Position numbers and translations under genes: made by a program. This document shows positions 12,184 through 62,799 of a stretch of DNA of 64,000 bases, piece after piece. Below the pieces are notes generated by a model. The model had not been told where the DNA came from, made no database searches, and saw only the letters and a program-made list of their open reading frames with translations. The stretch comes from Acidiphilium rubrum (GTDB taxonomy: Bacteria > Pseudomonadota > Alphaproteobacteria > Acetobacterales > Acetobacteraceae), in contig NZ_FTNE01000012.1 of assembly GCF_900156265.1 (NCBI RefSeq), positions 1 through 64,000 on the forward strand, given 5' to 3'. The first letter of the stretch is position 1, and every line of letters begins with the position of its first letter.

Positions 12184-12300
12184 GATGTCGGCACCGGTGT
12201 CATCAAAAATTCCCCCTGAGCCGGATTGGCTCTGACGGGTGGATGTGGCGTCAGGGTGTCATGACTGCAATGAATGTTGATTTTTGCTCATGTTTTTCGC

Positions 12301-43837: not shown

Positions 43838-45511
<1,674 letters not shown>

Positions 45512-47464: not shown

Positions 47465-48916
47465 TTGGGCTATCCATTCTTTCATGATGAGGTTTTATGT
47501 ACGGACACGGCGTTGAAGTGTTCGGCAGGCGACGACGATCTGGGCCCAGCGGCCTCGTCGGGCGGGGTGACGGACTTCAAGGCCTTTGCCGAGACGCTGT
47601 GTGCGACATGGGGGCAAAAGCCGGCCCGGCATCATCTGGTATTGATCGATGCGCTACAGCGAGTGGCGGATGGGTCGACCGACCGGTTGATGGTGCAGAT
47701 GCCGCCGGGTGCTGCCAAGTCGACCTACGCTTCGGTGCTGTTTCCGGCGTACTGGTTTGCCTCCAAACCGCAGAGTGAGGTGATCGCCGCTTGCCATACT
47801 GCTTCCCTCGCCGAACATTTCGGCCGGCGGTTGCGTGGTGTGATCGCCGAGCAAGGCGCACCGTTCGGTCTGGCGCTGGAGGCGAACAGCCGATCCGCTG
47901 GGCGCTTTTCGCTGACGGGTGGCGGGCAATATTTCGCCGCGGGTGTGCGCGGCCCGATTACCGGACGGCGGGCTGATCTGATCCTGATCGATGATCCAGT
48001 GAAATCCTGGGCGGAAGCTGACAGCAAGGTTGCGCGACGCTCGCTGTTCGACTGGTATCGGGCGGAGTTGCTGTCGCGGTTGAAGCCGGGCGGGCGGGTC
48101 GTGTTGATCATGACGCGCTGGCATGTGGATGATCTGGCGGGGCGGTTGATGAAGGAGGATCAGAACTGGTCCACACTGCGGTTTCCCGCCTTGGCCGAGG
48201 CTGATGATCCGCTGGGACGGGTGCTTGGCGAGGCGCTCTGGCCCGAGTGGCAGACTACAGCCGAAATCATCCGCCGGCGCGAAACGGTCGGCAAGCGGGT
48301 TTTTAGTGCGCTCTATCAACAAAGTCCGACAGTGGATCAATGTGAGGCGTTCGATGTGCCGCTGCTCGGCCGATTTACCGGCACGCCTGCGGTGGTGCGT
48401 ACCGTTCGGGCTTGGGATCTGGCCGCGACGGTTGCGTCGCCGGGTCGTGATCCTGACTGGACCGTGGGCTTGAAATTGGGGGCGCTGGAGGACGGGCGGT
48501 TGGTGGTGCTCGACGTTATTCGGGTGCGCGTGGGCCCGGCAGAGGTCGAGCGGTTGTTGGTGCAGACGGCGCGGGGCGATGGCGTGGCGACCATAATTTC
48601 CCTGGCGCAGGACCCTGGGCAGGCCGGGGTTGCGCAGATGGCTTATTTGAAGCGTGCGCTTTCGGGTTTCAACGTGGTTTCGAGCCCTGAGACCGGTTCG
48701 AAACTGGTGCGGGCGTTGCAGTCTTCGGCGGTGATCGGCCGTGGCGGGATGCTGCTGGTCGATGCTCGATGGACAGCTGATTTTATTGAAGAACTGCAAT
48801 TATTTCCGAACGGCGACAAGGATGACCAGGTCGATGCACTATCCCGGGCGGTTACGACAATCGGGGAGATACCGGCGGTCAGTCGGACGGCTTTGCATAC
48901 TCTGATGGGGCGATAG
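47465..48916 (+). CDS. Phage terminase large subunit
   Basis: The packaging motor that pumps DNA into the head and cuts it. Walker A is MPPGAAKST at about residues 79-87, Walker B is LILIDDP, and MTRWHVDDLAGRL follows as in T4-like enzymes. The nuclease acidic residues lie in RAWDLAAT and KDDQVDALSRA. The true start is uncertain: the frame opens at TTG 47465, but GTG 47567 (VTDFKAFAETL) has a G-rich stretch upstream and fits family length well. No small terminase gene precedes it. Confidence 0.88.
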   Translation: MGYPFFHDEVLCTDTALKCSAGDDDLGPAASSGGVTDFKAFAETLCATWGQKPARHHLVLIDALQRVADGSTDRLMVQMPPGAAKSTYASVLFPAYWFASKPQSEVIAACHTASLAEHFGRRLRGVIAEQGAPFGLALEANSRSAGRFSLTGGGQYFAAGVRGPITGRRADLILIDDPVKSWAEADSKVARRSLFDWYRAELLSRLKPGGRVVLIMTRWHVDDLAGRLMKEDQNWSTLRFPALAEADDPLGRVLGEALWPEWQTTAEIIRRRETVGKRVFSALYQQSPTVDQCEAFDVPLLGRFTGTPAVVRTVRAWDLAATVASPGRDPDWTVGLKLGALEDGRLVVLDVIRVRVGPAEVERLLVQTARGDGVATIISLAQDPGQAGVAQMAYLKRALSGFNVVSSPETGSKLVRALQSSAVIGRGGMLLVDARWTADFIEELQLFPNGDKDDQVDALSRAVTTIGEIPAVSRTALHTLMGR

Positions 48917-48919
48917 AAG

Positions 48920-50332
48920 ATGTTTGAAACGATCTGTCAGACGATTCCTGCCGATCCGCACATGGCGCCGCGGGCGCGGCGGATCGAACTCTATCGGCGG
49001 GTGTTGGAGGGGACGATCTACGATGCGCTGCCATATGCGTTCGGCGACGAGCGGAACGGCGCGGGAGAATATATTCCGCTGCGGGCACGCCGGCCATCGG
49101 TTCGGTATGGGTTGTGCCGCATCGTAGTGGAGGATTCGGTAGCGCTGCTGTTCAGTGCCGGGCATTTTCCGGCGGTCGTGTGCGAGGACCCGGCCATCGA
49201 GGCATTACTCGGCGATGTGATGCGCGAATGCCGCTTGAACGAGGTGATGATCGATGCGGCGCTGCGCGGATCGGTCGGGTCGGTCGCGATTCTGTTGCGG
49301 GTTCTGAAGGGGCGGTTGTTCTGCTCGGTGTTGGAGACGCAGCATCTGACGCCCGTGTGGCAGGAGGATGCGCCCGACACGCTGGCATCGGTGACTGAGC
49401 GCTACAAGGTTCGGGGTGCGGAGTTGCTGGTGCAGGGTTATCCGGACGTTGATCCTGGGCAGTTCTACTGGTTTCAGCGGGTCTGGGATGGCGGTGGTGA
49501 AACCTGGTTTCTGCCTCAGGCCGTGGCCGATGAGGCGCTGCCGCAGATCGACGAGGGGCGGAGTGTGCGGCATGGGCTGGGGTTCGTGCCGATCGTGTGG
49601 ATCAAGAACTTGCCGGGTGGCGATGGGATCGACGGGGCCTGCACGTTCAGGGCGGCAATCGATACCGGCATCGAGATCGATTATCAGTTATCGCAGGCGG
49701 GCCGTGGCTTGAAATATGCGTCTGATCCGACGTTGCTGATCAAGGAACCCGCCACCACCGATCGCGAACTGGTCAAAGGCGCTGGTAATGCTCTGATCGT
49801 CTCCGAGAAGGGTGATGCCAAGCTGCTGGAGATTGGGGGCACAGCTTCGGCCGCGGTGATCGATTATGTGCGGACGCTGCGCGAGATGGCGTTGGAAAGC
49901 GTGCATGGTAACCGGGCCAATGCGGACCGGCTGAGTGCTGCGCAATCGGGTCGGGCGCTGGAGTTGATGAACCAGGGTCTGATCTGGCTCGCGGACAATT
50001 TGCGGATTTCGTATGGCGAGGGTGGGTTGCTCGCTTTGCTGCGCATGGTGCTGCGGGCACGGGCGCGATTTGCGATCCGGGTGATGGGGCAGGCGATGCC
50101 CGATGTGGATGCGGACGTGCGGCTGAGTTTGCGGTGGCCGCGGTGGTATCCGGCCTCGGCGGATGATCGGCTGAAGGAGGCGCAGGCGATTGCGACCTTG
50201 GTGAACGCTGGGCAGATGTCGCGCGAGACGGCTGTGAAATCGCTCGCGTCGAGCCATGCGGTGGTCGATGTGGCGGCGGAGCTTGACCGGATTGTTGCGG
50301 AACAAGATCAATCTCAACAGGATGTGGCATGA
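48920..50332 (+). CDS. Phage portal protein
   Basis: A 470-residue protein that forms the dodecameric vertex through which DNA passes. It follows the terminase by three bases. RSVRHGLGFVPIVWIKNLPG and LSQAGRGLKYASDPTLLIKE, then MALESVHGNRANADRLSAAQ and LLRMVLRARARF, resemble SPP1-type portals, with the wing and long stem helix in that order. Its stop overlaps the start of the next gene (ATGA). Confidence 0.8.
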   Translation: MFETICQTIPADPHMAPRARRIELYRRVLEGTIYDALPYAFGDERNGAGEYIPLRARRPSVRYGLCRIVVEDSVALLFSAGHFPAVVCEDPAIEALLGDVMRECRLNEVMIDAALRGSVGSVAILLRVLKGRLFCSVLETQHLTPVWQEDAPDTLASVTERYKVRGAELLVQGYPDVDPGQFYWFQRVWDGGGETWFLPQAVADEALPQIDEGRSVRHGLGFVPIVWIKNLPGGDGIDGACTFRAAIDTGIEIDYQLSQAGRGLKYASDPTLLIKEPATTDRELVKGAGNALIVSEKGDAKLLEIGGTASAAVIDYVRTLREMALESVHGNRANADRLSAAQSGRALELMNQGLIWLADNLRISYGEGGLLALLRMVLRARARFAIRVMGQAMPDVDADVRLSLRWPRWYPASADDRLKEAQAIATLVNAGQMSRETAVKSLASSHAVVDVAAELDRIVAEQDQSQQDVA

Positions 50333-50736
50333 GTGAAGACAGAACGGATGATGGATCGCCGCCGGCTGATTGGCAGGCGCGGGCTGAGGCGGCCGAGCTG
50401 GCGCTGGGCGCGGTGCAGCGGGAAGCCGGTGAGCGGCTGAAGCGTGCGGAGCTCAAGGTTGAGGCGGTGCGCGCGGGGATGGTCGATCTCGATGGGCTGA
50501 AGCTGATCGATCTGGATGGTGTGGCGTTGGCGGAGGATGGGTCGGTTGCCGATCCGGCCGGTATCATGGTGGCGTTGAAGCGTGCGAAGCCATGGTTGTT
50601 CGGGGCCGGGTCGTCATCCTCGACGGCGGCGGTGCCGCGGGCCGAGCCGCCGCGGGCGCGGCATGCGCGGGAGTTGAGTGAAGAGGAGTGGCGGTCGGCG
50701 CGGGCTGCGTTGTTACGGCGGGCGGGGAGTCAGTGA
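50329..50736 (+). CDS. Probable phage scaffolding protein
   Basis: A 135-residue protein: an Ala/Glu-rich coiled-coil stretch (WQARAEAAELALGAVQREAG), then VDLDGLKLIDLDGVALAEDG, a low-complexity Ser/Ala/Pro linker and a basic C-terminal helix (EEEWRSARAALLRRAGS). The position between portal and capsid, the coiled coil and the basic end fit a capsid scaffold. No protease is adjacent. The family is not firmly recognised. Confidence 0.6.
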   Translation: MSEDRTDDGSPPADWQARAEAAELALGAVQREAGERLKRAELKVEAVRAGMVDLDGLKLIDLDGVALAEDGSVADPAGIMVALKRAKPWLFGAGSSSSTAAVPRAEPPRARHARELSEEEWRSARAALLRRAGSQ

Positions 50737-50927: not shown

Positions 50928-52250
50928 ATGGGTATTTCCAATTTTCCGGCATCTTTGCAGCCGATCATTCAGCAGGGGTTTCTGGAGCGTGAGTTCGAGC
51001 AGGCGCTGCGGTCGCGGCTGGGCTACCGGATGGTGGCGGACCGCGAGAGTTTCGCCGTCGGGATCGGCGAGACGCTGACCAAGACGAGGGCAGGGCTGAA
51101 ACCATCGGTTACGACCCCGTTGGCGGCCAGCACCAATACCAATCTGGACAATGGTTTGACGCCGCAGGGCTGGGGTGTCGAGCAATATACTGTGACGCTG
51201 AATTTCTATGCAGCGACGCAGGATTTGAATATGGTGACCAGCCGCGTGGGAATTGCGTCGCAGTTTTTGCAGAACGCTTCGACCAATGGCGAGCAGGCGG
51301 CACGCAGCCTTGATGAGCTGGCGCGGAATGCGTTGTTCGCGCCGTATTTCGGCGGCAATACCCGCGTGCTGACGACGCTGGGCACCACCGGTCCGACGAT
51401 CGCGGTTGATGACGTGCGTGGATTCACCACGATTTATGTCAATGGCGTGCAGACGGCGGTTTCGGCTTCCTATCCGTTGGAGGTGACGGTGGGGAGCAGC
51501 GTGTATTCGCTGATTTCGGTGACGCCGGATTTGAACAGTACATCGTCGACACCGGGTGGTCTTTCGGGCCAACTGACGTTTGCCAGTGACGTTGTTGTCA
51601 GTGACGGCACGGCCGGCAATCCGGTGATTGCGGCAACGGCGAGCAAGATCATCCGCCCGTCCGGCCTGCTCACGACATCGGCCCTGCAGGCGGGCAATAC
51701 GTTGACGATGTCGGTGCTGCTGGATGCCGTGGCCTCGTTGCGGCAGAATGCGGTGCCGGAAATCGATGGCGCGTATAATTGCTATCTCGATCCGGTCTCG
51801 GCGCGGCAGCTGTTTTCCGATCCTGATTTCCGGCAGTTGTTTCAGGGTGCGACTTCGAACAACCCGGTGTTTCGTCAGGGCATGGTCAATGATTTCCTGG
51901 GTCTGCGGTTTGTCACGACGACCGAGGCGATCGTGCAGCCGCTCACGAATTCGGGTGGCCTGGCCATACGGCGGCCGATTATCTGCGGCAAGGGCGCGCT
52001 GATCGAGGCGGATTTTGCCGGGATCGGGGCGGAGGATGTCGCGCCGAAGGATGCGCTCGTGAACATTATCGACAGTGTCGCGATGGTCACGCGTGAACCG
52101 ATCGATCGGCTGCAGCAGATCATTGCCCAATCCTGGTACTGGATCGGCGGGTTCTGTGCGCCTTCCGACACGACGACGACCCCGATCGTGGTGCCGACCG
52201 CGACAAATGCGAATTTCAAGCGGGCGGTGATGATCGAGCATATCGGCTGA
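50928..52250 (+). CDS. Phage major capsid protein
   Basis: A 440-residue protein with AAGGGGAC before the ATG. SLDELARNALFAPYFGGNTR, QYTVTLNFYAATQDLNMVTS and IDRLQQIIAQSWYWIGGF are like N4 gp56-type HK97-fold capsid proteins. A region at residues 155-245 rich in Ser/Thr/Gly looks like an inserted domain. It follows the scaffold and repeat copy C. An upstream in-frame ATG reads through the repeat and is not used. Confidence 0.75.
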   Translation: MGISNFPASLQPIIQQGFLEREFEQALRSRLGYRMVADRESFAVGIGETLTKTRAGLKPSVTTPLAASTNTNLDNGLTPQGWGVEQYTVTLNFYAATQDLNMVTSRVGIASQFLQNASTNGEQAARSLDELARNALFAPYFGGNTRVLTTLGTTGPTIAVDDVRGFTTIYVNGVQTAVSASYPLEVTVGSSVYSLISVTPDLNSTSSTPGGLSGQLTFASDVVVSDGTAGNPVIAATASKIIRPSGLLTTSALQAGNTLTMSVLLDAVASLRQNAVPEIDGAYNCYLDPVSARQLFSDPDFRQLFQGATSNNPVFRQGMVNDFLGLRFVTTTEAIVQPLTNSGGLAIRRPIICGKGALIEADFAGIGAEDVAPKDALVNIIDSVAMVTREPIDRLQQIIAQSWYWIGGFCAPSDTTTTPIVVPTATNANFKRAVMIEHIG

Positions 52251-52569: not shown

Positions 52570-52974
52570 ATGTCGGGCAGCTATGACAGCGCGCCTGGGG
52601 TTTTGACCGAGGCGCAGAAGGTCGATGTACGGCGGTTCTGCGGCTATCCCGCCTATGGTGCCGGGGCGTCTGGATTTCAGTCCTGGCGGTTCTTCCAGGC
52701 TTATGGTTCGCTCGAGTACCGGATGAATAATTTTGCTCCGACCGAGGTTGTGGTTGTGGTGAATTATCTGGCGACCTTGAACGGGCTGGAGGCGGCGGTG
52801 CCGCTGGCGAGCGGTAATCTTGATACCGATGCTGCGGCGAGTTGGCAGCATAACCACCGCGAAGTGCGCGATCGCGATGCGCTGTTCGATGGCTGGCGGC
52901 GGCGGCTGTGCGGTTTCATCGGGGTGCCGCCGGGGCCTGCTTTGGAATCTGCCGGCATCACTTTGATTGTTTGA
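52570..52974 (+). CDS. Phage head-tail connector-like protein
   Basis: A 134-residue soluble protein. VLTEAQKVDVRRFCGYPAYG opens a helical N-terminus and RDALFDGWRRRLCGFIGVPP is near the end. Its place after the capsid suggests a connector or adaptor between portal and tail. No known family is certain. Confidence 0.55.
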   Translation: MSGSYDSAPGVLTEAQKVDVRRFCGYPAYGAGASGFQSWRFFQAYGSLEYRMNNFAPTEVVVVVNYLATLNGLEAAVPLASGNLDTDAAASWQHNHREVRDRDALFDGWRRRLCGFIGVPPGPALESAGITLIV

Positions 52975-52981
52975 GGATTGC

Positions 52982-53626
52982 ATGGACGGTGTCAGGCTGG
53001 CTGACCGCATCGCGTATGGCGGGGGTATGGCGGCGCGCAAGGCGGGCGTGATCTGTGATGCGTACCGACCGCGGGATGGTGCTTGCCCGATTGTGGCGGT
53101 GAACCGGACGGTGCGGCTCGCGGTGCTATCGGTGCCGGTTTCGGGTTCGGCGCGCGGGCCGGCGCCGTTCGGGGTGCCGTATCGTCAGCTTGTACTGGAT
53201 CAGGCGTATGTTGCGCCGGGAGATTACATTGCCGGGCCGTTGGGGGTGTTGCTGGTGGCGACCAATGAGCCACCGGCGCCGGTGCTGGGCGTGCAGTGCA
53301 ATGAGACGGTGACGCTGTGGCGGCCGGGTTCGCAGGTGTTGGCGGGGGTCAATCCGTATGGGGCGATCCTGTCGGGGACGGCGACCGCTGTTCTTGCGGG
53401 GTTTCCGGCGGCGCTGTTGCCGGGGGGCGTGAGTGATCGTGGGCGGGTCGGGCTGCCGGACGATACCAAGCTGCCGGGGTATGTGGGCGCGGTTGCGGCG
53501 GTTGCCGGGCTCACGCCGCAGGTGGCCGATATTGTGCGCGATGCGCGGGGGCGACAGTTCGTGGTGGATGCGGTGATCGCCTATGGCGGGATCTGGCGGC
53601 TTGCACTGACTGAAAGTGTGATGTGA
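52982..53626 (+). CDS. Hypothetical phage connector/tail-completion protein
   Basis: A 214-residue beta-rich protein (RLAVLSVPVSGSARGPAPFG, TVTLWRPGSQVLAGVNPYGA). Start is ATG 52982; a TTG five codons earlier is weaker. The stop overlaps the next gene's ATG by one base. It occupies the usual place of neck proteins; function is not recognised. Confidence 0.55.
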   Translation: MDGVRLADRIAYGGGMAARKAGVICDAYRPRDGACPIVAVNRTVRLAVLSVPVSGSARGPAPFGVPYRQLVLDQAYVAPGDYIAGPLGVLLVATNEPPAPVLGVQCNETVTLWRPGSQVLAGVNPYGAILSGTATAVLAGFPAALLPGGVSDRGRVGLPDDTKLPGYVGAVAAVAGLTPQVADIVRDARGRQFVVDAVIAYGGIWRLALTESVM

Positions 53627-54471
53627 TGGCGGACCAGGCGGATGTTGAAAACGCGCTGGCTGCGCTGGTCGCGACTGCGGTGTATCCGAACGGAACGGGC
53701 GAGGTTTCAGCCGTGGTGGGGCCTCGTGGTGCGGTGACGTGCCGGGTGTATCGCGGCCTGCCGAACGCGCCGGCGCTGGAGGCTGATCTGGCGCAGGGGG
53801 TGATGCACGCCACCGTGTTCACGGCCGATCCTGTGGTGAAGAATACGACGCGGTTTCCACGGGTCTGGCAGGCTGTGGCGCCGGTGCCCGCTACACTTTC
53901 GGTGATGATTGGGAACCAAGCAGCGACTTTTTCGGGCGTGTGTGCGGCCGGGCAGTTGGCCGGGATTGCGGTGGATGGGGCGATTTTTCCCTATGCGGTG
54001 CAGGCGCGCGACACGCCGCCGACGGTTGCGAGCAATCTGGCGGCGCTGCTGCGGGCGGCGGGATGGTTGGTCGACTACGCCGGCACGACCGTGACGGTGC
54101 CGGCGGCGCGGCTGTTCACCGCGCGCGTGGTGGCGGGCGGCCTGGCGCTGCAGGAGATCAAGCGGCAGGTGCAGGCGTTTCGGATTTCGCTGTGGTGCCG
54201 TGACCCGCTGACGCGGGATGCGGCGGCGGCTAAGATCGATCCGGCATTGGCGGCACCGAACTTCATTCAGCTGGCGGATGGGTCGTGCGGCCATCTGGTT
54301 TTTGCGGGCGGGACGAGCACGGATGCGGGTGCGGATGCCGCGCTGTACCGGCGCGATCTGATTTATACTGTTGAATACCCGACAACGCTGGCCGCTATCA
54401 CGCCTGCGATGCTGTTCGGGGTTGGCGGTATTGAGGCGAATGGCGCGTTTATTGCCGGTATATCCGGTTAA
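53626..54471 (+). CDS. Phage tail-terminator-like protein
   Basis: A 281-residue protein lying between connector and sheath genes. VENALAALVATAVYPNGTGE resembles the start of tail completion proteins, and VQAFRISLWCRDPLTRDAAA with DLIYTVEYPTTLAAI is the type of beta-sheet segment seen in them. The adjacent genes support a role in closing the tail tube. The call is made on layout and weak resemblance. Confidence 0.55.
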   Translation: MADQADVENALAALVATAVYPNGTGEVSAVVGPRGAVTCRVYRGLPNAPALEADLAQGVMHATVFTADPVVKNTTRFPRVWQAVAPVPATLSVMIGNQAATFSGVCAAGQLAGIAVDGAIFPYAVQARDTPPTVASNLAALLRAAGWLVDYAGTTVTVPAARLFTARVVAGGLALQEIKRQVQAFRISLWCRDPLTRDAAAAKIDPALAAPNFIQLADGSCGHLVFAGGTSTDAGADAALYRRDLIYTVEYPTTLAAITPAMLFGVGGIEANGAFIAGISG

Positions 54472-54621: not shown

Positions 54622-56178
54622 ATGCCGATTTCACAGGCGGGTGCGCTGAACACGACCGCGTTGATCGTGCCGGATTTGTACGTGCAGATCGTGCCGCCGC
54701 AAAGCTTGCTGCTCAACGGTGTGCCGACCGACGTACTGGGTGTGGTGGGTAGTGCGAGTTGGGGGCCGGTGAACGAACCGATGATCGTGGGCTCGATGGG
54801 CGATTACGCGACCGCGTTCGGCCCAGTGGTGGCGCGCCAGTATGACATCGGGACGGTCGTGGCCATCGGTGTGCAGCAAGGGGCATCCAATTTCCGTTGC
54901 GTGCGGGTGACCGACGGGACCGATACGGCGGCGTCGGTTTCGATTCTGGGCGCGCTGACCTTGACCGCTTTGTATACCGGCAGCCTGGGTAATGCCCTGG
55001 TTGCGACTGTTTCGGCCGGATCGGCGGCGAATTCCTGGCGGGTGACGATTGCTTTGCCGGGGCAGACGCCGGAGGTGTTTGACAACATCATCGGCAGTGA
55101 CGCGGCATTCTGGCAGGCAGTGGCGAGTGCGATCAACACGGGTACCGGCCCGATGCGCGGCGCATCGCGCCTGGTGGTGGCGAGTGCCGGTACGTCCTCT
55201 TTGGCACCATCGGTGGGGGCGTTTCCATTCCTGGCGGGTTCGCCGGGTACCGATGGGGCGACCGCAATGACCTCGGGCATGGTGATCGGTCAGGATGTGC
55301 TGCCCCGATCGGGAATGTATGCGCTGCGGGGCCAGGGTTGCAGCATCATTGTGCTGGCCGATCTTGATGATCCGACACAATGGAGCACTGAGGTTGCGTT
55401 CGGACTCGATGAGGGCTGCTATATGATCCTGGCGGGGCCGCCGGGCGATACGATCGCGAACGCGGTTCTGACGAAGCAGACGGCCGGCATCGATTCCTAT
55501 GCAGCCAAGCTGATGTTCGGCGATTGGCTGTGGTGGTATGATCAGGCGAACGGCGTGACGCGTCTGGTTTCGCCGCAGGGGTTTGTGGCGGGGCGGCTCG
55601 CGAATTTGTCGCCGGAGCAGTCTTCGCTGAACAAGCCGTTGTATGGTGTGGTCGGGAGCCAGAAATCCGGTCAGGCGGTGGCGGGGACCAGCAATACGTA
55701 TTCGACGGCTGACCTGGCGGCACTGCTCTCGGCGGGGATCGACGTCATCAGTAATCCGCAGCCGGGTGGTGCATTCTGGGGGGTGCGTGGGGGGCATAAT
55801 TCATCGTCCGACAGTGCGACCAATGGCGATAACTACACTAGGATGACCAATTATATTGCTGATACGCTCTCAGCCGGGATGGGCGGGTATGTCGGACAAT
55901 TGGTCAATACCACGCTGTTCCAGAATATCCGCTCGACGTTGCTGTCGTTTTTGAACGCAATGCTGGGCCAGAGGATGTTGGGTTCGACCAACGGCTCGCT
56001 GCCTTTTGCGGTGGTGTGCGACATCTCGAACAATCCGCCCTCGCGCACGGGCCTGGGGTACGTGCAGGCGGATGTGCAGGTGCAGTATCAGGCGATCAAT
56101 GAAAAATTCATCGTCAATGTCGAAGGCGGGCAGACCGTGCAGGTCAGTCAGCAGACGTTGCCGCTGGGAACCGTGTGA
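54622..56178 (+). CDS. Phage contractile tail sheath protein
   Basis: A 518-residue protein whose contraction drives the tube into the host. TDVLGVVGSASWGPVNEPMI near the N-terminus, a variable outer domain (about 90-330), then NLSPEQSSLNKPLYGVVGSQ and the C-terminal NFIG-like NNPPSRTGLGYVQADVQVQY are hallmarks of sheath proteins. The tail tube follows. It proves a myovirus-type tail. Confidence 0.9.
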   Translation: MPISQAGALNTTALIVPDLYVQIVPPQSLLLNGVPTDVLGVVGSASWGPVNEPMIVGSMGDYATAFGPVVARQYDIGTVVAIGVQQGASNFRCVRVTDGTDTAASVSILGALTLTALYTGSLGNALVATVSAGSAANSWRVTIALPGQTPEVFDNIIGSDAAFWQAVASAINTGTGPMRGASRLVVASAGTSSLAPSVGAFPFLAGSPGTDGATAMTSGMVIGQDVLPRSGMYALRGQGCSIIVLADLDDPTQWSTEVAFGLDEGCYMILAGPPGDTIANAVLTKQTAGIDSYAAKLMFGDWLWWYDQANGVTRLVSPQGFVAGRLANLSPEQSSLNKPLYGVVGSQKSGQAVAGTSNTYSTADLAALLSAGIDVISNPQPGGAFWGVRGGHNSSSDSATNGDNYTRMTNYIADTLSAGMGGYVGQLVNTTLFQNIRSTLLSFLNAMLGQRMLGSTNGSLPFAVVCDISNNPPSRTGLGYVQADVQVQYQAINEKFIVNVEGGQTVQVSQQTLPLGTV

Positions 56179-56190
56179 GGACAATAGATC

Positions 56191-56619
56191 ATGCCATATA
56201 ACAGTTTTTCAGTCGGCAATGACTGCCAGATCGTGGTGATGGGGCCATTTGGCCGGATCGATCTGGCGTTCGTCACCGGGTTCGAGGTGAGCCAGGTTAC
56301 GCAGAGCGTGCGGATCGATCGGCTGGATGGGGTGCAGCTGGGTGCCGAACTGCCGCGCGGGTGGCAGGGTAGTTTCGCACTGGACCGGGGCACGTCGGTC
56401 GCGGATGATTTCATGGCGCAGATCGAGCAGGCGTATCTGGCGGGGCAGGCAATTCCGCCGGGAACGCTCTATCAATATGTTAGTGAAGTCGATGGTTCGA
56501 CCTCGACCTATCAATACGAGGGCGTGGTGTTCAAGCTCAGCTCGGCCGGTATGTATCGCGGTGACGCACCGGTTGCGCAGAAGCTCGACTTCTTTGCATC
56601 GACCAGGAAGCGGGTATGA
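56191..56619 (+). CDS. Phage tail tube protein
   Basis: A 142-residue protein, the partner of the sheath. GPFGRIDLAFVTGFEVSQVT opens the beta-barrel, and STYQYEGVVFKLSSAGMYRG then KLDFFASTRKRV closes it, as in P2 FII / Mu tube proteins. The last codons overlap the chaperone gene (ATGA). Confidence 0.85.
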   Translation: MPYNSFSVGNDCQIVVMGPFGRIDLAFVTGFEVSQVTQSVRIDRLDGVQLGAELPRGWQGSFALDRGTSVADDFMAQIEQAYLAGQAIPPGTLYQYVSEVDGSTSTYQYEGVVFKLSSAGMYRGDAPVAQKLDFFASTRKRV

Positions 56620-56921
56620 GCGATCGGGTGATCGAGGATGCGCGTGGGCGGCAGTTGAGCCTGCGAACGCTGACGATGCTGGACCGTTTGCGTTTGTTCA
56701 AGGCTCTGGGTGCGAATTTATCGATGAACGACGCGTATCTCGGCGTGGCGTCGCTCGCGGCTTCGGTAACCGCGGTGGATGGCGTGCCGCTGCTGTTTCC
56801 GGCGAGCGAGGCGGCGGTGGAACATGCGGTCGAGCGGTTGGGCGAGGAGGGGATCGAGGCGGTTGCCTTGGCGCTCGATGCTGATGACGCCGGCGCGGTA
56901 AAGGCGCTGGCGGGAAACTGA
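56616..56921 (+). CDS. Phage tail assembly chaperone, short form
   Basis: A 101-residue Ala/Leu/Asp-rich helical protein (DRLRLFKALGANLSMNDAYL, then EEGIEAVALALDADDAGAVK) between tube and the next tail gene, the place of gpE/G-type chaperones. It ends right at a slippery heptamer, so a part of the ribosomes should continue in the -1 frame to make the long form. Confidence 0.8.
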   Translation: MSDRVIEDARGRQLSLRTLTMLDRLRLFKALGANLSMNDAYLGVASLAASVTAVDGVPLLFPASEAAVEHAVERLGEEGIEAVALALDADDAGAVKALAGN

Positions 56922-57088
56922 GCCGGCACCCCGCGTTGATCGACTGCCTGTATCTGGTCGGGCGCGGGGTGCCGTTCGATGTGGCGTTTTCGCTGGGTGA
57001 GGCGGAACGCCTGGCGTTCGTTGTGGCGTGCGGCGAGTTGGACGGGCTGGAATTCGATTGGAAGACCATGCTGTGGGGGACGCCATGA
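56616..57088 (+). CDS. Phage tail assembly chaperone, long form (-1 frameshift product)
   Basis: The zero frame is read to 56918, then shifts back one base at GGGAAAC. The new frame reads LSRHPALIDCLYLVGRGVP, then FDVAFSLGEAERLAFVVACG and LEFDWKTMLWGTP, adding about 57 residues before the stop at 57086-57088. That extension has no start codon or binding site of its own, and DWKTM-like ends are typical of gpE'/gpGT proteins. The stop overlaps the start of the next gene. Confidence 0.8.
56912..56974 (+). promoter_or_regulatory. Programmed -1 ribosomal frameshift signal
   Basis: The heptamer G GGA AAC (56912-56918) fits X XXY YYZ in the zero frame and is followed at once by TGA. After a 5-base spacer, a 12-bp perfect stem (56924-56935 with 56963-56974, CGGCACCCCGCG and its complement) encloses a 27-base loop. 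All three parts of a classical signal are in place. Confidence 0.88.
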
Positions 57089-58104
57089 TCGTACCGCGGG
57101 ATGGGGCGGGCGTGCGCTATGCGCGGTTTGGCGGGGCCGCTGGTCGGCGCTTGGCGAAATCGTTGGCGCTGGGACTGCGGGGGGCACCGCGCCGGGTTTT
57201 GGCGATGCGTGTGCTGGCGGCGCGCGTGATGCCTTGGCGCGCCGGTGCCGGCGCTGCGTTCGGGCGGATCGCGCGTTCATCGCCCGGAGTGACCGTTCGC
57301 CTCGCTACCGGGCGCCCGGATGATGCGGTGCATGTCGGTGGTGCCGGATTCGGGATGCGGCGGGCTGAGTCGTTCAGGGGATCGGTTGTGGGGCGCGTGC
57401 GGCGCTCTGAATGGTCGTTTGAGAGGTTGCGGACAGGGCGTGCGGGGCCTGGCGTGCCGATTTGGGCTGGGGGTCTGCGGGGACTCCCGCCGGGGCTGAT
57501 CAGGCGGGCTGAGGTCGCGGCAAAGCTCATGAAGACGGTTCCGCGAAATCTTGCAGGTGGTGCTTCGCCCATTGGTGCCGCGGGAGGGGCTGACAGATTC
57601 GTGTGGATTATCCCGCGACGTATTGATGATCGGCTTAGCGGGCGTTGTGCGGCAGCGGGTGTCCGAAAAATCCGGACGGTCCGGCGTATGCTCGCATCAC
57701 GCCAACCGATGTCGAGATATGACGTAGCGCCTGAAAGCGGCGGCGTTGTTGTGCGGGCGATGGCGCCGGTGGCGCGGGATCGCGGTGGCCGGTTGGGTGA
57801 TCAGGGCTTTGATGGGCGCCGGCCGGCGGCGGTCGATCCAACGGTTAGGGTTGATGAGCACCGACGCCGGGTTGTCACCCACCAGGGCGTGGTGGACCGG
57901 CGGCTCGACCGGCAGCCGGTGGGGCCGGTCGAGACTAGGGGGCACTTTGGTGAGCGGCTGACCGGGGCGGCGATCGTGCCTGAAGATATGGCGCGGATGG
58001 TGCGTGATCTGTTTGCCGATGAGGCGCGGCGACCGCCTTCGGGCGTGACCGGGTTCGATGGCGCGCTTTCGCCGATATTTCCGGGACGCAAACCGGGGTT
58101 TTGA
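57085..58104 (+). CDS. Unrecognised Arg-rich protein in the tape-measure position
   Basis: A 339-residue protein with about one Arg in six residues, few Lys, no membrane segment and no coiled coil. It starts MIVPRDGAGVRYARFGGAAG, overlapping the frameshift product's stop, and ends SPIFPGRKPGF. Codon third positions are GC-biased as in neighbouring genes, so it is coding. In P2-like and Mu-like phages this slot, between the chaperones and the U-type protein, holds the tape measure (about 600-1000 residues). This protein lacks its features. It may be a short unusual tape measure, a replacement, or an unrelated insert. Confidence 0.7.
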   Translation: MIVPRDGAGVRYARFGGAAGRRLAKSLALGLRGAPRRVLAMRVLAARVMPWRAGAGAAFGRIARSSPGVTVRLATGRPDDAVHVGGAGFGMRRAESFRGSVVGRVRRSEWSFERLRTGRAGPGVPIWAGGLRGLPPGLIRRAEVAAKLMKTVPRNLAGGASPIGAAGGADRFVWIIPRRIDDRLSGRCAAAGVRKIRTVRRMLASRQPMSRYDVAPESGGVVVRAMAPVARDRGGRLGDQGFDGRRPAAVDPTVRVDEHRRRVVTHQGVVDRRLDRQPVGPVETRGHFGERLTGAAIVPEDMARMVRDLFADEARRPPSGVTGFDGALSPIFPGRKPGF

Positions 58105-58119
58105 GATCAGGAGTCTGGC

Positions 58120-58806
58120 ATGACGTCGGTTGCGGTGACGCTTGGTGGTGTCGCATTTCGGGATTTCGAGGTGCCGGCCGAGATCAAGTTTGGCGGTACG
58201 CAGCGGTTGGCGGTGCATCAGCCGGTTGGTGGTGGCCGCGTAGTGGATGTGCTCGGTGCGGCGGCGGGTGAGATTACGTTCGGCGGGACATTTTCCGGAC
58301 CGGATGCGGCGTTGCGGGCGCAAGCGCTGGATGTGGCGCTGAACATCGGCGCGACCCTGCCGCTCGCATGGGACGGATTTGCGTTTAGCGTGGTGATCAC
58401 CGCCTTCACTGCGACGTATCAGAAGCCTTGGTGGATCCCTTTTCAGATCACCTTGTTGTCCGTCGAGAATCTGGTGACGGCGATACCCTCTGCGCTGGCG
58501 CAGGCCGGGCTTGATATTGCCAGTGCGGCCGGGTTCGGTGGCTTAAGTGGTGTTTCGCTGGCCGGTGTTTCCGCCGGCAGTTCTGCCGGTATCGCGGCGG
58601 GCCAGGCGAGCCTTGCGGAGGCGGTGAGCGGGGCTGGATCGGTGCTGAGCGCGGCAACGACTCTTTTTTCAGGAGGGGTAGGTGCCGCGCAGCCGATCGG
58701 GGCCTTGGCCGCTCTGGGGGCGGCATCATCGACGCTGGCCGGTGCCGCGGCGGCGCAGGCCTACCTGGGACGAGCTGCGGCAAATGTCGGACTGGGGGCG
58801 TTATGA
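58120..58806 (+). CDS. Phage GpU-like tail protein
   Basis: A 228-residue protein. The first half (QRLAVHQPVGGGRVVDVLGA, GEITFGGTFSGPDAALRAQA, TLPLAWDGFAFSVVITAF) resembles gpU-type tail-tip proteins. The second half is a long Ala/Gly/Ser-rich helical region (GLAA-type repeats) with no known homologue that I recall. It follows the Arg-rich gene and precedes the X-like gene, as U and X do in P2-related phages. Confidence 0.6.
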   Translation: MTSVAVTLGGVAFRDFEVPAEIKFGGTQRLAVHQPVGGGRVVDVLGAAAGEITFGGTFSGPDAALRAQALDVALNIGATLPLAWDGFAFSVVITAFTATYQKPWWIPFQITLLSVENLVTAIPSALAQAGLDIASAAGFGGLSGVSLAGVSAGSSAGIAAGQASLAEAVSGAGSVLSAATTLFSGGVGAAQPIGALAALGAASSTLAGAAAAQAYLGRAAANVGLGAL

Positions 58807-58994
58807 GCGAAACCATGGTGACGGTGGTCGGTGGTAATCTATTCGCGATTGCAGCGCAGTATCTGGGTGATGCCACGCAGTGGATTCGGATTGCACAGGC
58901 GAATGGTCTGCGCGACCCGGTGTTGAGCGGTGTGGTGACCTTGGCGCTGCCCCCGGTTGATCCACAGGCAACGGGTGGTGTGCCGAATGTCTGA
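58803..58994 (+). CDS. Phage tail protein X (LysM-like)
   Basis: A 63-residue protein, MVTVVGGNLFAIAAQYLGDA then TQWIRIAQANGLRDPVLSGV, with the LysM-like fold that tail protein X uses on the baseplate hub. The start overlaps the previous stop (ATGA) and the end overlaps the D-like gene by 8 bases. Confidence 0.8.
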   Translation: MSETMVTVVGGNLFAIAAQYLGDATQWIRIAQANGLRDPVLSGVVTLALPPVDPQATGGVPNV

Positions 58995-60012
58995 CACGCT
59001 TGCATCGGCGGTTATGGCGCGTCCGGTATCGCTGGCGGTGGCGATTGATGGGGCGCCGGTTGCTGGGGTCGAACGGCTGGAACTTTTGCAGTGCGGGCAT
59101 TTCGCGGCTGATCGGTTTCGGGTGATGCTCGCTGCCGGTGCGGCGCCGGGCGGAGCAGCGGCGTTTGCCGGATTGCAGGCAGGGACCGTAACGATTGCGA
59201 TCGGGCTGGGTGGTGGGGTTGTATCGGGCGATCCCATACTGACCGGGCAGCTCGATAATGTCGCGGTGGATTTCGGAGCCGGGCAGATCGTGCTCTCGGG
59301 ACGTGATCTGTCGGCGCGACTGATCGACACCGAGGTCGGCCAGAGCTTTGCCAATCAGACCGCCAGCCAGATTGCCGAGGCGTTCGCGGCGGACGCGGGC
59401 TTGGCAGCGAACGTCACCGCTACGAGCACGCCGGTTGGGCAGTATTACGAGTTGGCGCATATGCGGACCGCCCTGGGTATGCACACGCGGCATGCGACGC
59501 GGTGGGACTTGCTCGCCGGATTGGCGGCGGTCGAGCAGTATTCGTTATCCGTGATCGGGACCGTGCTGAATTTCGGGCCACCCGCACCGGCGCCAACCTC
59601 GTTGGTGGTGTTCGGGCGTGATTTGCTGACGCTGGTGGTGGATCGCGCTCTGGGCCTAGTGGCGCCTCCGGTGACCGTGACAAGCTGGAATCCCAAATTG
59701 AAGCGACGCTTTTCCAACACGGTCGGGTCCTCTGGCGGCACCGCCGCCGGTGGCGTGACGCTCCTGCGGCCTAATCTCACGCAGGCGGAGGTGGATCGGG
59801 AAGCGGCGGCGCGGCATGCGGCGCTGGCGGCCCAGGCGGTGTTGCTGCGGGCAAGCATGCCGGGGGAACTGACGATGGTGCCGGACAGCGTATTTGCCTT
59901 GCAGGGGACCGGGACGGTGTTCGACGCGTCGTATGTGGTGCGGACCATCGAGCGGAGTGTCGATATTCGGCAGGGATTCGTGCAGCGCTTTGAAGCGTTG
60001 CAGGTGGCATGA
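58987..60012 (+). CDS. Phage baseplate hub protein (gpD-like)
   Basis: A 341-residue hub protein. PVSLAVAIDGAPVAGVERLE starts the first domain, ITIGLGG-type strands and VDFGAGQIVLSGRDLSARLI follow, and DLLAGLAAVEQYSLSVIGTV with PVTVTSWNPKLKRRFSNTVG is the second domain. Order and content match gp44/gpD-type late control proteins. Confidence 0.8.
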   Translation: MSDTLASAVMARPVSLAVAIDGAPVAGVERLELLQCGHFAADRFRVMLAAGAAPGGAAAFAGLQAGTVTIAIGLGGGVVSGDPILTGQLDNVAVDFGAGQIVLSGRDLSARLIDTEVGQSFANQTASQIAEAFAADAGLAANVTATSTPVGQYYELAHMRTALGMHTRHATRWDLLAGLAAVEQYSLSVIGTVLNFGPPAPAPTSLVVFGRDLLTLVVDRALGLVAPPVTVTSWNPKLKRRFSNTVGSSGGTAAGGVTLLRPNLTQAEVDREAAARHAALAAQAVLLRASMPGELTMVPDSVFALQGTGTVFDASYVVRTIERSVDIRQGFVQRFEALQVA

Positions 60013-60557
60013 TGGATGGGTTCTGGAATGCCGTGAAGGCGCGGGCGGCGGCGTTGGATGGGATGAGCGGTCAGGCGCGGTTTGGCATCGTCGCGAGTTT
60101 CGATGCATCGGCTTACGCCGCGCGGGTGATGCTGCAGCCGGAGAATGCACTATCCGGGTGGCTTCCGGTGCTCAGCTCATGGATTGGTGCTGGCTGGGGG
60201 ATGGCGGCGCCATTGTCGCCGGGGGATCAGGTTATGGTGCTCGGGCAGGAGGGCGATGCTGAGCAGGCGGTGGTGATCGGGCGCGTATGGTCGAATGCCG
60301 AGCCGACGCCGGGGGCACCGGTAGGCGAGTTCTGGTTGGTGCATCAGACCGGGTCGTTCATCAAACTGAAGAATGACGGCACGATAACGTTGCAAGCGAG
60401 CACGGTTTCGATCCAGGGGGATTTGATGGTGAGTGGCGAGATTTCCGATCTGGCGGGTGCGCATGGTACTGTCGATCGTCTGCGCCAGGCATATGACCGG
60501 CACGTGCATGCCGATCCGCAGGGTGGGCAGACCGGTGTGCCATCGGTGGTGGTGTGA
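60009..60557 (+). CDS. Phage baseplate assembly protein V (spike)
   Basis: A 182-residue central spike protein. The OB-fold region has ARFGIVASFDASAYAARVML and APLSPGDQVMVLGQEGDAEQ, and beta-helix strands follow (GTITLQASTVSIQGDLMVSG). The end has HVHADPQGGQTGVP, like the HxH iron-binding tip of gpV. It overlaps the D-like gene by 4 bases. Confidence 0.88.
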   Translation: MMDGFWNAVKARAAALDGMSGQARFGIVASFDASAYAARVMLQPENALSGWLPVLSSWIGAGWGMAAPLSPGDQVMVLGQEGDAEQAVVIGRVWSNAEPTPGAPVGEFWLVHQTGSFIKLKNDGTITLQASTVSIQGDLMVSGEISDLAGAHGTVDRLRQAYDRHVHADPQGGQTGVPSVVV

Positions 60558-60919
60558 TGGCGGATGCGGCATTGGTATTTGGCGGTGATCTGGCCATCGG
60601 GGTGTCGGGTGATCTGGCGCTTGCCGGCGGGTCCGGCTTGACCGAGCAGCGGGTTTTACGACGGCTCTTGACCAATCCTGGTGATTATATCTGGCAGTTA
60701 TCCTACGGTGCCGGGTTGGGTCAGTTTGTCGGTGTGGCCGGGGCGGCGGGCGCAGTTGGTGCGGTGACGCGCGCACAGCTTCTGGCAGAGGCCCGCGTTG
60801 CGCAATCGCCTTTGCCGCAGATTGCGGTCGAGCAGACCGGTACCTCGGGAATTGCGCTTACGATTGCGTATCAGGACGCGATGACCGGTCAGGCGACCGC
60901 GCTGACCTTGCCCGTCTGA
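60557..60919 (+). CDS. Phage baseplate wedge protein (GPW/gp25 family)
   Basis: A 120-residue protein. DLALAGGSGLTEQRVLRRLL, TNPGDYIWQLSYGAGLGQFV and RVAQSPLPQIAVEQ are like gp25/W, which starts sheath assembly at the baseplate. A GTG one codon earlier could also start it. Confidence 0.85.
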   Translation: MADAALVFGGDLAIGVSGDLALAGGSGLTEQRVLRRLLTNPGDYIWQLSYGAGLGQFVGVAGAAGAVGAVTRAQLLAEARVAQSPLPQIAVEQTGTSGIALTIAYQDAMTGQATALTLPV

Positions 60920-60993
60920 TATCGAGTTTGGGTTGAGGCGTTTGGGCGGCCTTGCTCGCGGAAACGGCTGTTTCCGGATTTAGAGGATATTTC

Positions 60994-62118
60994 ATGCCAT
61001 TATCGTTACAGAATTTCACCGCGATGGTGGAGCAGATGGCGGCTGCCGTGCAGGGGGCCGCGACGCAGGTGCTGGATCTGACTGTTGGCTCGGTCTTGCG
61101 CGCGATTCTGGAGGCGAATGCGTCGCTCGGATTGTGGCTGCAATGGTTGATCGTCGAGGTTTTGCAGACGACGCGATTGGCGACCAGCAGCGGCACCGAT
61201 TGCGATAGTTTCGGGGCAGATTTCGGGTTCGTGCGATTACCGGCCTCGACGGCGGGGGGCGTTGTTACATTCGGCCGGTTTGCACCCGTGCTATCGGCTT
61301 TTGTGCCGGTTGGGACGACGGTGATGACCAGCGATGGCAGCCAGAGTTTCACTGTCAGCGCGGATACGAGCAACCCGGCCTATAGTGCTGGCTCGGGCGG
61401 TTATGGGCTCGCAGCGGGCATTGCCTCGATCGATTTGCCGGTAGTGGCCGTGGTGGCGGGGGCGGCGGGCGATGTCTTGGCGGGGACGATTGGGCTACTG
61501 ACGAGCGCTATCCCCGGGATCGATACCGTGAGCAACGCGGCACCGATGACCGGCGGGTTGGATGCGGAGAGCGATGCGGCGTTCAAGGCCAGGTTCGGCA
61601 ATTATCTGGCCAGTTTGTCACGCGCGACGCCAGATGCGATCGAGGAGAGTGTGGCTGGTGTGCAGCAGGGATTGTCGGTTTCGGTTGCCGAGAACGTCGA
61701 TCAGACGGGTGCCGTGAGCATGGGCAGTTTTGTCGTCACGGTCGATAACGGGACCGGGGCACCGCCGGCCGGTTTGTTGGCGAGCATCGCTGCGGCGGTG
61801 AACGCAGTGCGGCCGGTAGGTACCCGGTTTGCGGTGCAGGGTCCGGTGGTTGTTAACGCCGATGTATCGATGACACTGACGTTGGCGCCGGGGGCGCAGG
61901 CGCCGGTGGTGATTGCGGCGGTGAGTGATGCGATTTCCGCCTATATCGAGTCGTTGCCGGTGGGCGCCGGGTTGCCCTACTCGCGGCTTGCACAGATCGC
62001 CTATGACGCGTCGAGTGCTGTGGTCAATGTGACCGACACGGTCTTGAACGGCACCACGGCCGATTTGGTACCGCCGTTGTTTGGTGCCGTGCGGGTCGGT
62101 ACGGTTAGCGTGGCCTGA
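60994..62118 (+). CDS. Phage baseplate J-like protein
   Basis: A 374-residue baseplate wedge protein. LTVGSVLRAILEANASLGLW, GTDCDSFGADFGFVRLPAST, MTGGLDAESDAAFKARFGNY and DNGTGAPPAGLLASIAAAVN are the classic Baseplate_J segments. A gap of about 70 bases separates it from the W gene; TAGAGGATA lies before the ATG. Confidence 0.88.
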   Translation: MPLSLQNFTAMVEQMAAAVQGAATQVLDLTVGSVLRAILEANASLGLWLQWLIVEVLQTTRLATSSGTDCDSFGADFGFVRLPASTAGGVVTFGRFAPVLSAFVPVGTTVMTSDGSQSFTVSADTSNPAYSAGSGGYGLAAGIASIDLPVVAVVAGAAGDVLAGTIGLLTSAIPGIDTVSNAAPMTGGLDAESDAAFKARFGNYLASLSRATPDAIEESVAGVQQGLSVSVAENVDQTGAVSMGSFVVTVDNGTGAPPAGLLASIAAAVNAVRPVGTRFAVQGPVVVNADVSMTLTLAPGAQAPVVIAAVSDAISAYIESLPVGAGLPYSRLAQIAYDASSAVVNVTDTVLNGTTADLVPPLFGAVRVGTVSVA

Positions 62119-62121
62119 GCG

Positions 62122-62799
62122 ATGAGCGGATCACAGGTTCCGTCCGGTAGTTCGGCCGACATGCTAGCGCGGCTGAAGGCAGTCTTGCCGACACGATGGT
62201 TTGCAGATGCCACGCCGGTGCTCGATGCCGTGCTCGGGGGCGTCGCGGCGGTGTGGGCGGCTTTATATGCGCTGATCGGGTTCGCTGCGTTGCAGACGCG
62301 GATTGCGACCGCGAGCGGACCATTTTTGGATATTGCGGCGCAGGATTATTTTGGTACCGCATTGACCAGACGGGCGGGTGAGACCGATGCTGCGTTCAGT
62401 GCGCGGATCAGGTCGAATCTGTTGGCACCGCGCGCGACCCGGGATGCGCTGATTGCGGCACTGATTGTCGAGACGGGTCGGGTTCCGGTGGTATTCGAGC
62501 CGTTTAACACCGGGGATACCGGTGGTTATTCAAGTAACACGCTCGGCTACAACGCCATGGGCGGCTACGGAAGCCTGATGTTGCCGTATCAATGCTTCGT
62601 GACGGCGTACCGGCCGGTTGTCACGGCGTCCGGGAATAATGGTGGCTACAATTTTGGACCAGGGGGTTACGCGACCGCGCCGATGGCGTGGAGCGATCTG
62701 GCCGATGACCCGGGCTTGATCACCGATGCCGAGATCTATGCCGCCATTGTCGGGGTGCTGCCGGTGAACGGCGTTGCGTGGACCCGGCTTTCCGACTGA
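62122..62799 (+). CDS. Phage tail protein I-like (gp48-like)
   Basis: A 225-residue protein in the P2 I position between J and fibre. SSADMLARLKAVLPTRWFAD starts the chain; LDIAAQDYFGTALTRRAGET and SARIRSNLLAPRATRDALIA are like the part of I/gp48 that links baseplate and fibre. The middle has a Gly/Tyr/Asn-rich insert (TGGYSSNTLGYNAMGGYGSL). Confidence 0.75.
   Translation: MSGSQVPSGSSADMLARLKAVLPTRWFADATPVLDAVLGGVAAVWAALYALIGFAALQTRIATASGPFLDIAAQDYFGTALTRRAGETDAAFSARIRSNLLAPRATRDALIAALIVETGRVPVVFEPFNTGDTGGYSSNTLGYNAMGGYGSLMLPYQCFVTAYRPVVTASGNNGGYNFGPGGYATAPMAWSDLADDPGLITDAEIYAAIVGVLPVNGVAWTRLSD

What the first reader, a model, noticed from the sequence alone, without database searches (positions are those of the whole stretch)
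57085..58104. Arg-rich 339-residue protein where a tape measure should be
The tail block has all expected P2/Mu-type genes except the tape measure. The only gene in its slot is short, about 17 percent Arg, and lacks coiled coil or membrane segments. It might be a tape measure for a very short tail, or the system may set tail length by another means.
Basis: partly seen in the sequence, partly recalled or inferred. Interest (0 to 1): 0.65.

Follow-up and report, generated by a model that had tools for sequence, protein, structure and literature searches.

The report
Shrunken tape measure in phage-derived element
The odd arginine-rich gene is most likely a shortened, rebuilt "ruler" protein for the tail of a virus-like particle that this group of acid-loving bacteria appears to have inherited and kept in working order for a long time.

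Summary
The ORF is real: 57085-58104, 339 aa, 17.4% Arg, pI 11.9, no membrane segment, no confident fold. Best reading: a reduced tape-measure protein (TMP). Its last ~45 residues match the C-terminus of slot proteins of other genera and of long ORFs (770, 709, >=578 aa) that hit a PHROG tape-measure family. The block is not an ordinary prophage: terminase-to-fibre genes (46.5-72.5 kb) lie between groES/usg and ppk1 in the Acidiphilium genomes read, are under purifying selection (dN/dS mostly below 0.2) and diverge in step with PPK1 (sheath r = 0.95): a gene-transfer-agent-like contractile particle, packaging untested. The linker is nearly unconstrained (dN/dS 0.46-0.79) yet stays open and almost Cys-free; its Arg content is what base composition predicts. 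Four acetic acid bacteria phages give 0.128-0.134 nm of tail per TMP residue, predicting ~44 nm here. In nine Acidocella-group loci the slot is empty; 8 of these genomes have the gene elsewhere, 7 at the cluster's far end. In two of them the same C-terminal module also ends separate proteins, one with an effector-like domain, so it may load cargo. "TMP for a very short tail" is partly supported; tail length was not measured.

The parts
57085..58104 (+). Reduced tape-measure protein (339 aa): N-terminal motif (RDxxGxR), variable Cys-poor linker, RAxAPV-like motif, conserved C-terminal ~45 residues
57967..58104 (+). Conserved C-terminal module shared with long TMPs
56616..56921 (+). Tail assembly chaperone, short form (phrog_20383; role from position and frameshift)
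56912..56918 (+). Slippery heptamer GGGAAAC for -1 frameshift; of 76 related chaperone genes examined 60 have GGGAAAC, 14 AAAAAAC, 1 GGGAAAT, 1 none
56919..57088 (+). -1 frame extension of the chaperone (ends FDWKTMLWGTP), overlapping the TMP start as ATGA
46526..47368 (+). 280 aa, no family match; position suggests small terminase subunit (inference)
47465..48916 (+). Large terminase (Terminase_6N/6C)
48920..50332 (+). Portal (SPP1_portal)
50329..50736 (+). Probable scaffold (Phage_scaffold match below its cut-off)
50928..52250 (+). Major head protein (phrog_1357)
52570..54471 (+). Three conserved genes of unknown function between head and sheath (phrog_14539, phrog_14605, phrog_13532), connector position
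54622..56178 (+). Tail sheath
56191..56619 (+). Tail tube (phrog_12993; function inferred from position)
58120..58806 (+). 228 aa protein after the TMP, GpU-like by position (phrog_21362)
58987..60012 (+). Baseplate hub / tail protein (phrog_52, phrog_177)
60012..60557 (+). Baseplate V / spike (Phage_base_V)
60557..60919 (+). Baseplate W-like (phrog_975, weak)
60952..62118 (+). Baseplate J
62122..62799 (+). Tail protein I-like (phrog_26379; name from position)
45530..45820 (-). groES: left host flank shared by the genus
46122..46379 (+). usg: left host flank shared by the genus

Best explanation
ORF 57085-58104 is the tape-measure protein, reduced and rebuilt, of a vertically inherited, contractile-tailed, gene-transfer-agent-like particle of Acidiphilium. 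Inferred working: tube rings polymerise around it as around any TMP; the frameshifted chaperone pair coats it; its conserved C-terminus docks on the hub; the linker, whose sequence hardly matters beyond staying open and Cys-poor, sets a tail of about 44 nm, roughly half that of the phages compared. Shown: slot, conservation of the ORF in the genus, homology of the C-terminus to long TMPs, purifying selection on the structural genes and on the C-terminus, genus-wide synteny. Inferred: ruler function, tail length, DNA transfer.
For: Slot between frameshifted chaperone and GpU-like gene. C-terminus homologous to slot proteins of other genera (hhalign probability 98.4, E 5e-15) and to four long ORFs not used to build the profile (E 4e-13 to 3e-9); three of these four hit PHROG tape-measure family phrog_28 (E 9e-10, 6e-11, 4e-4; the fourth has no hit). 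L163 (770 aa) lies 1.5 kb past a 64%-identical sheath and aligns by hhalign (probability 90, E 2e-6). A C-terminal match lies in the slot in 58 of 68 loci with tube and U (22 of the 58 supplied rows to that profile); of the other 10, nine were searched genome-wide and 8 of the 9 have it elsewhere, L108 was not. C-terminal 45 codons dN/dS 0-0.22 against 0.46-0.79 for the middle in 3 pairs. Same host flanks: groES/usg in 7 of 7 relatives whose fetched DNA reaches there, ppk1 in 7 of 7. Sheath versus PPK1 identity r = 0.954 over 21 pairs; portal 0.91, J 0.95, MCP 0.78. Calibration: 645 aa/86.1 nm, 742/98.9, 742/95.0, 805/104.6 (PMC8566455 Table 1; gene lengths).
Against: No TMP family matches the ORF itself. 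No membrane segment or long confident helix. Homology covers only ~45 of 339 residues; the N-terminus of other slot proteins (AYxIGIRLAL) is absent here, and even that matches phiKX1 only weakly (probability 10). ORF length varies 256-339 aa in the genus, odd for a ruler unless tails vary too. Particles have not been seen; no transduction data. dN/dS of the large terminase is 0.24 in one pair. A few structural genes outside Acidiphilium have an in-frame stop (7 in 6 of 80 loci). The cluster sits at another site in Acidocella (rpmI-rplT), so vertical descent is shown within the genus, not between genera. Two of the four calibration phages (phiKM1, phiAP1) showed no sheath match to ours.
Confidence: 0.74

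Rival explanations
1. The protein is mainly a cargo carrier: the C-terminal module docks proteins in the tail lumen and the rest is a minimal or degenerate payload; tail length is set by something else.
For: In Acidocella-group assemblies G259 and G260 proteins encoded away from the structural genes end in the same module. One (L137, 377 aa) has an N-terminal domain with matches in 5 of 248 family genomes; the four I read are untagged, 181-228 aa, and two of them lie beside a signal-peptide protein homologous to L137's neighbour.
Against: 65 of the 76 listed matches of the module in 248 family genomes lie on a contig with a sheath match; of the other 11, three were read: two long TMP-like ORFs and a cluster fragment. 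No Pfam, NCBIfam, PHROG or PDB match shows an enzymatic domain in the tagged proteins. The N-terminal part of G260's cluster copy has one weak partial match in 248 genomes. The window ORF has no foldable N-terminal domain.
Confidence: 0.12
2. Tail length is set by other means and the ORF is an accessory basic protein, for example one that binds DNA in the tail.
For: High pI, no ruler-like helix; length not conserved.
Against: C-terminus homologous to true TMPs in the same slot; Arg content is what base composition predicts, so a selected basic character is not shown.
Confidence: 0.09
3. A decaying gene of a defective prophage.
For: Middle dN/dS 0.46-0.79; the hexamer model sees coding only in the last 71 residues.
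Against: Homologue in 10 of 13 genomes; in 9 linkers Cys is 2 of 1978 codons against about 71, and stops 0 against about 33, expected from dinucleotide shuffles; structural genes of the Acidiphilium loci have no in-frame stop in the aligned parts (L030-L035) and are under purifying selection.
Confidence: 0.05

Closest known systems
Tape-measure proteins of acetic acid bacteria myophages phiKX1/phiKX2, phiKM1, phiAP1
   Same: Same gene slot; phiKX1 shares sheath (52%), portal (44%), MCP (50%) and a loosely alignable C-terminus
   Different: 645-805 aa; the three scanned (phiKX1, phiKM1, phiAP1) have PHROG tape-measure matches, the window ORF none. phiKM1 and phiAP1 sheaths did not match ours
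RcGTA tape measure g11 and the GTA of Rhodobacter capsulatus
   Same: Short TMP (113 + 83 + 20 residues) and 49-nm tail (PMC7296036, passages)
   Different: RcGTA's tail is siphovirus-like without sheath (recalled) and its TMP has a 113-residue helix; ours has a sheath and a disordered linker. No direct sequence test was made between the two
Classified GTA groups (type I, type II, Brachyspira; PMC9662315 abstract, outline and passages)
   Same: Phage-derived, vertical descent
   Different: The tails described in the passages seen are non-contractile or absent; that text has no hit for Acetobacteraceae. Packaging and transfer untested here
phiAO1 particle of Acetobacter orleanensis (LC644971)
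   Same: 43-nm head, 46.6-nm tail, no integrase, host-like genes interspersed
   Different: No sheath match to ours in the search of that collection; homology not otherwise tested

Membership tests
Phage tape-measure protein | Gene lies between frameshifted tail chaperone and baseplate genes | tested here: met
Phage tape-measure protein | Sequence homology to proteins recognised as TMPs | tested here: met
   C-terminal ~45 residues only
Phage tape-measure protein | Direct profile match to a known TMP family (usual, not essential) | tested here: not met
   the four slot or relocated proteins tested from other genera also have none
Phage tape-measure protein | Long helices / hydrophobic segments (usual, not essential) | tested here: not met
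Phage tape-measure protein | Its length sets tail length | not testable with these tools
   Prediction 43-45 nm from four phages
Gene transfer agent | Vertical transmission with the host genome | tested here: met
   Within the genus; between genera the site differs
Gene transfer agent | Structural genes kept by purifying selection, no phage replication or integration genes in the cluster | tested here: inconclusive
   Purifying selection met. No integrase, repressor or replication match in the genes scanned; not every small ORF was scanned by every library
Gene transfer agent | Packages host DNA, at best part of its own genome; induced in few cells | not testable with these tools
   -
Tailocin | Lacks head and packaging genes | tested here: not met
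   Terminase, portal, head protein present

The most novel reading that the evidence does not exclude
The C-terminus of a tape-measure protein has become a portable loading tag for the tail of a domesticated, head-bearing contractile particle: the ruler gene has shrunk to tag plus neutral tether, has moved within the cluster, and in some Acidocella the tag ends separate proteins with an effector-like domain encoded beside an envelope partner, so one particle could deliver both DNA and proteins.
Probability: 0.2. Interest if true: 0.88.

Novelty: new variant of a known kind. Interest (0 to 1): 0.64.

Why it matters
It offers a natural series, from long TMPs to a C-terminal anchor on a free-evolving tether, to ask what a tape measure really needs: length, sequence or only its ends. 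It also points to a contractile-tailed GTA candidate spread over a family of bacteria. In my searches no listed title or abstract start describes one; the library holds open-licence papers only and most listed papers were not opened. PMC12142844 (passages) reports phage-like contigs with P2/Mu-type baseplate genes that align to Acetobacteraceae genomes and names GTAs as one general fate of cryptic phages; whether those contigs are this element was not tested.

Tried and rejected
Wrong-frame or frameshifted-TMP idea: the other two forward frames have many stops and the C-terminus is conserved in this frame. "Selected Arg-richness": not supported, base composition suffices. "TMP lost in Acidocella": nine loci have an empty slot, but the tagged gene was found in 8 of those 9 genomes; in 7 it lies downstream of the fibre genes on the cluster contig, in L092's genome on another contig beside rpmI-rplT, and in L040's genome it was not found. 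In the tree these nine do not form one clade (L050, L060 and L074, with a filled slot, fall among them). "Second TMP in the window genome": only a sub-threshold PhageMin_Tail hit on another contig (C41); fetched, not read. My gene call 44288-45466(+) is an artefact: dN/dS above 2; a 550-aa minus-strand ORF (43838-45490), presumably groEL (not scanned), overlaps it. SleB-like hydrolase guess for L137: no Pfam, PHROG or PDB support. A loose regular expression missed the slot ORFs of L031 and L034; replaced by a profile. One 145-aa row (L079) adjoins N bases. L108 has a 334-aa slot ORF but no profile hit. Left out: G001 from alignment A1 and from the linker statistics (97% identical to G002); 17 of 80 loci from the tree, for lack of sheath, MCP or portal. 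The text of PMC8566455 gives a mean tail of 156 nm that does not fit its own Table 1; I used the table only, and left out phiAX1 and phiAO1, whose annotation (first 40 kb of phiAX1; all of phiAO1) names no sheath. The paper's PHAST result calls phiKX1 incomplete and phiKX2 questionable. The Cys deficit is against shuffles; coding sequence in general is poorer in Cys than shuffles (recalled), and over 58 family slot ORFs Cys is 112 of 20076 residues, so it is strongest in Acidiphilium.

Full report
Observation. The ORF is at the stated place: ATG 57085 to stop 58104, 339 aa, 17.4% Arg. Its ATG overlaps, as ATGA, the stop of a -1 frame extension of the chaperone gene 56616-56921; the slippery heptamer GGGAAAC lies at 56912-56918. 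In 76 related chaperone genes 60 have GGGAAAC, 14 AAAAAAC, 1 GGGAAAT and 1 none. So the ORF follows a chaperone pair of the frameshifted kind, the normal place of a tape measure (recalled). Pfam and PHROGs give no match to it. AlphaFold2 on nine homologues gives mean pLDDT 40.

What evolves and what does not. Ten of 13 genomes of the genus have one homologue each. The genus is Acidiphilium: contigs of G010 (151309 bases) and G003 (274167) have the lengths of named Acidiphilium sp. PA and A. iwatense contigs and match over the same block. Nine of the ten, aligned (G001, 97% identical to G002, left out), share an N-terminal motif RDxxGxR, an AP motif (RAxAPV-like) and a C-terminus LF[AG]DEARRPPSGVTGFDxxLSPIFPGRKPGF or close to it. 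In three close pairs the middle has dN/dS 0.71, 0.79 and 0.46, the last 45 codons 0.22, 0.09 and 0 (few changes in the third pair). Other genes of the cluster run from 0 to 0.29, most below 0.2; the highest are s281 0.29, a 61-codon fibre fragment 0.28, hub 0.26 and large terminase 0.24, each in one pair. In nine linkers Arg is as expected from dinucleotide shuffles (mean z 0.42), while Cys is 2 of 1978 codons where about 71 are expected and stops are 0 where about 33 are expected. The linker therefore behaves as a translated tether whose sequence is almost free.

Identity. Slot proteins of other genera share the C-terminus (A1 against 24 of them: hhalign probability 98.4, E 5e-15). Eleven that I chose align from an N-terminus like AYxIGIRLAL...DLAALD through a Pro/Ala-rich linker; that N-terminus is absent in Acidiphilium. 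The C-terminal profile A6 (34 rows) then found long ORFs not used to build it: L164 578 aa (runs to a contig end), L163 770 aa, L161 639 aa, L165 709 aa, counted stop to stop. Three of the four hit the PHROG tape-measure family phrog_28 (E 9e-10, 6e-11, and 4e-4 for L165; L161 has no hit); Pfam has no TMP match for any. L163 lies 1.5 kb past a 64%-identical sheath, and hhalign places its last 45 residues on A6 (probability 90, E 2e-6). So the ORF carries a tape-measure C-terminus. The link to phiKX1's 742-aa TMP alone is weak.

The element. From 46.5 to 72.5 kb lie terminase, portal, scaffold-like, head, connector-position, sheath, tube, chaperone, TMP, baseplate and fibre-like genes, with no integrase, repressor or replication match in those scanned. 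The same order occurs in the relatives fetched (the first gene, 280 aa, has no match in G005 and G007), between groES/usg and ppk1 wherever the DNA reaches (7 of 7 left, 7 of 7 right). Identity of sheath, portal and J follows that of PPK1 (r 0.95, 0.91, 0.95; MCP 0.78; 21 pairs of 7 genomes). A sheath homologue occurs in 112 of 248 genomes of the family (54 of 102 genera), which includes phage-type copies below 60% identity and a few weak matches. A five-gene FastTree of 65 rows (63 of 80 loci, window, phiKX1; supports not shown) sets the group apart from phiKX1, with Acidiphilium and the Acidocella group adjacent. I call this GTA-like, not a GTA: packaging and transfer were not tested.

Length. 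Of 68 fetched loci with tube and GpU-like gene, 58 have a C-terminal match between them, stop to stop 145-503 aa, median 327 (22 of the 58 supplied rows to the profile; the 145-aa row adjoins N bases). Four acetic acid bacteria phages give tail nm/TMP aa of 86.1/645, 98.9/742, 95.0/742 and 104.6/805 (PMC8566455, section 7 read; gene lengths), 0.128-0.134 nm per residue; two of them, phiKX1 and phiKX2, share our sheath family. That predicts 43-45 nm for 339 aa and about 33-45 nm across the genus. RcGTA, for comparison, has a 49-nm tail with a TMP of about 216 residues (PMC7296036, passages), so the factor is not universal.

Movement and reuse. In nine Acidocella-group loci the slot is empty. 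The tagged gene was found elsewhere in 8 of these 9 genomes; in 7 it lies past the last fibre-like gene of the cluster, and rpmI-rplT follow it in these 7 and in L092's genome. Two of these genomes have extra tagged ORFs on contigs with no structural gene in the ~20 kb read: G259 C44 (478 aa) and C83 (377 aa), G260 C16 (313 aa); and G260's cluster copy has an extra ~280-aa N-terminal part. The first ~185 residues of the C83 protein have matches in 5 of 248 genomes, including the window's own (G000:C64, 45% identity); the four read are stand-alone proteins of 181-228 aa. In the window's genome and in G091 they lie beside a signal-peptide protein homologous to the C83 protein's neighbour (38% and 33% identity); in the other two the neighbour is a different one. 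This looks like an effector-partner pair fused to the tape-measure tag. No domain database supports an activity, both assemblies are metagenomic, and such extras are rare: 65 of 76 matches in the family lie on a contig with a sheath match, and of the other 11 only three were read.

Literature. In the GTA papers looked into (PMC9662315 abstract, outline and passages; PMC10883770, a term search with no hits; PMC10783043 passages; PMC9022992 passages) I saw no mention of this element. PMC12142844 (passages) mentions phage-like contigs aligning to Acetobacteraceae genomes and GTAs as a general possibility. PMC10975493 (one passage) gives phiKX1 a myoviral morphology. Searches: no listed title or abstract start describes a contractile-tailed GTA in this family.

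Noticed in passing
L137:10212-11345 (-) and 11485-12204 (-) (G259:C83); L129:12615-14051 (+) with 11899-12618; L131:13214-14155 (+) with 11863-12717: Stand-alone Acidocella-group proteins that end in the tape-measure C-terminal module, each with an upstream ORF whose start looks like a signal peptide or membrane anchor (read by eye).
   Followed up: partly
L166:546-1133 and 1147-1665 (-) (G000:C64): The window's own genome holds an untagged relative of the N-terminal domain of that protein, next to a signal-peptide protein.
   Followed up: partly
L122/L123, L124, L125, L127, L130, L132, L134 (Acidocella group): The tape-measure gene has moved about 16 kb to the 3' end of the cluster, beside rpmI-rplT.
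   Followed up: yes
L014 (G010:C86, Acidiphilium sp. PA), between sheath and tube: About 1.4 kb of extra DNA between sheath and tube; the first ~17 residues of the tube are not aligned there. Looks like an insertion; not identified.
   Followed up: no
L020 (G002:C18), 3' end of the cluster: The 714-aa gene reads only 489 aa here and the next gene lies about 1.4 kb further on than expected; possibly an insertion.
   Followed up: no
G189:C2:356065 and 371084; G226:C1:3422039 and 3436490: Two sheath genes about 15 kb apart on one strand in two genomes of one genus (Acidisoma silvae contig for G189); the second copy shows no tube or baseplate match in the 12 kb read.
   Followed up: partly
L052, L053, L104 (one MAG, CAIYCW01): Three copies of the cluster in one metagenome assembly, two in opposite orientation on one contig.
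   Followed up: no
L140, L141, L145, L152, L153: In other genera with sheaths of 46-57% identity the slot also holds a short ORF (254-346 aa) with its own shared ending, (V/F/I)DE(L/I/M)...QY(P/A)...SxG.
   Followed up: partly
L160 (LC644971.1, phiAO1): The record called phage phiAO1 mixes terminase and baseplate genes with catalase, peroxiredoxin and superoxide dismutase genes; its particles have 43-nm heads and 46.6-nm tails.
   Followed up: partly
L130:12260-12787 (Acidocella group): A muramidase-like gene (holin-associated N-acetylmuramidase model, E 7.5e-11, below its cut-off) lies between the fibre genes and the relocated tape-measure gene.
   Followed up: no
G000:C41:25274-25585 (L136): Sub-threshold PhageMin_Tail match in a 541-aa ORF, perhaps the tape measure of another prophage.
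   Followed up: no
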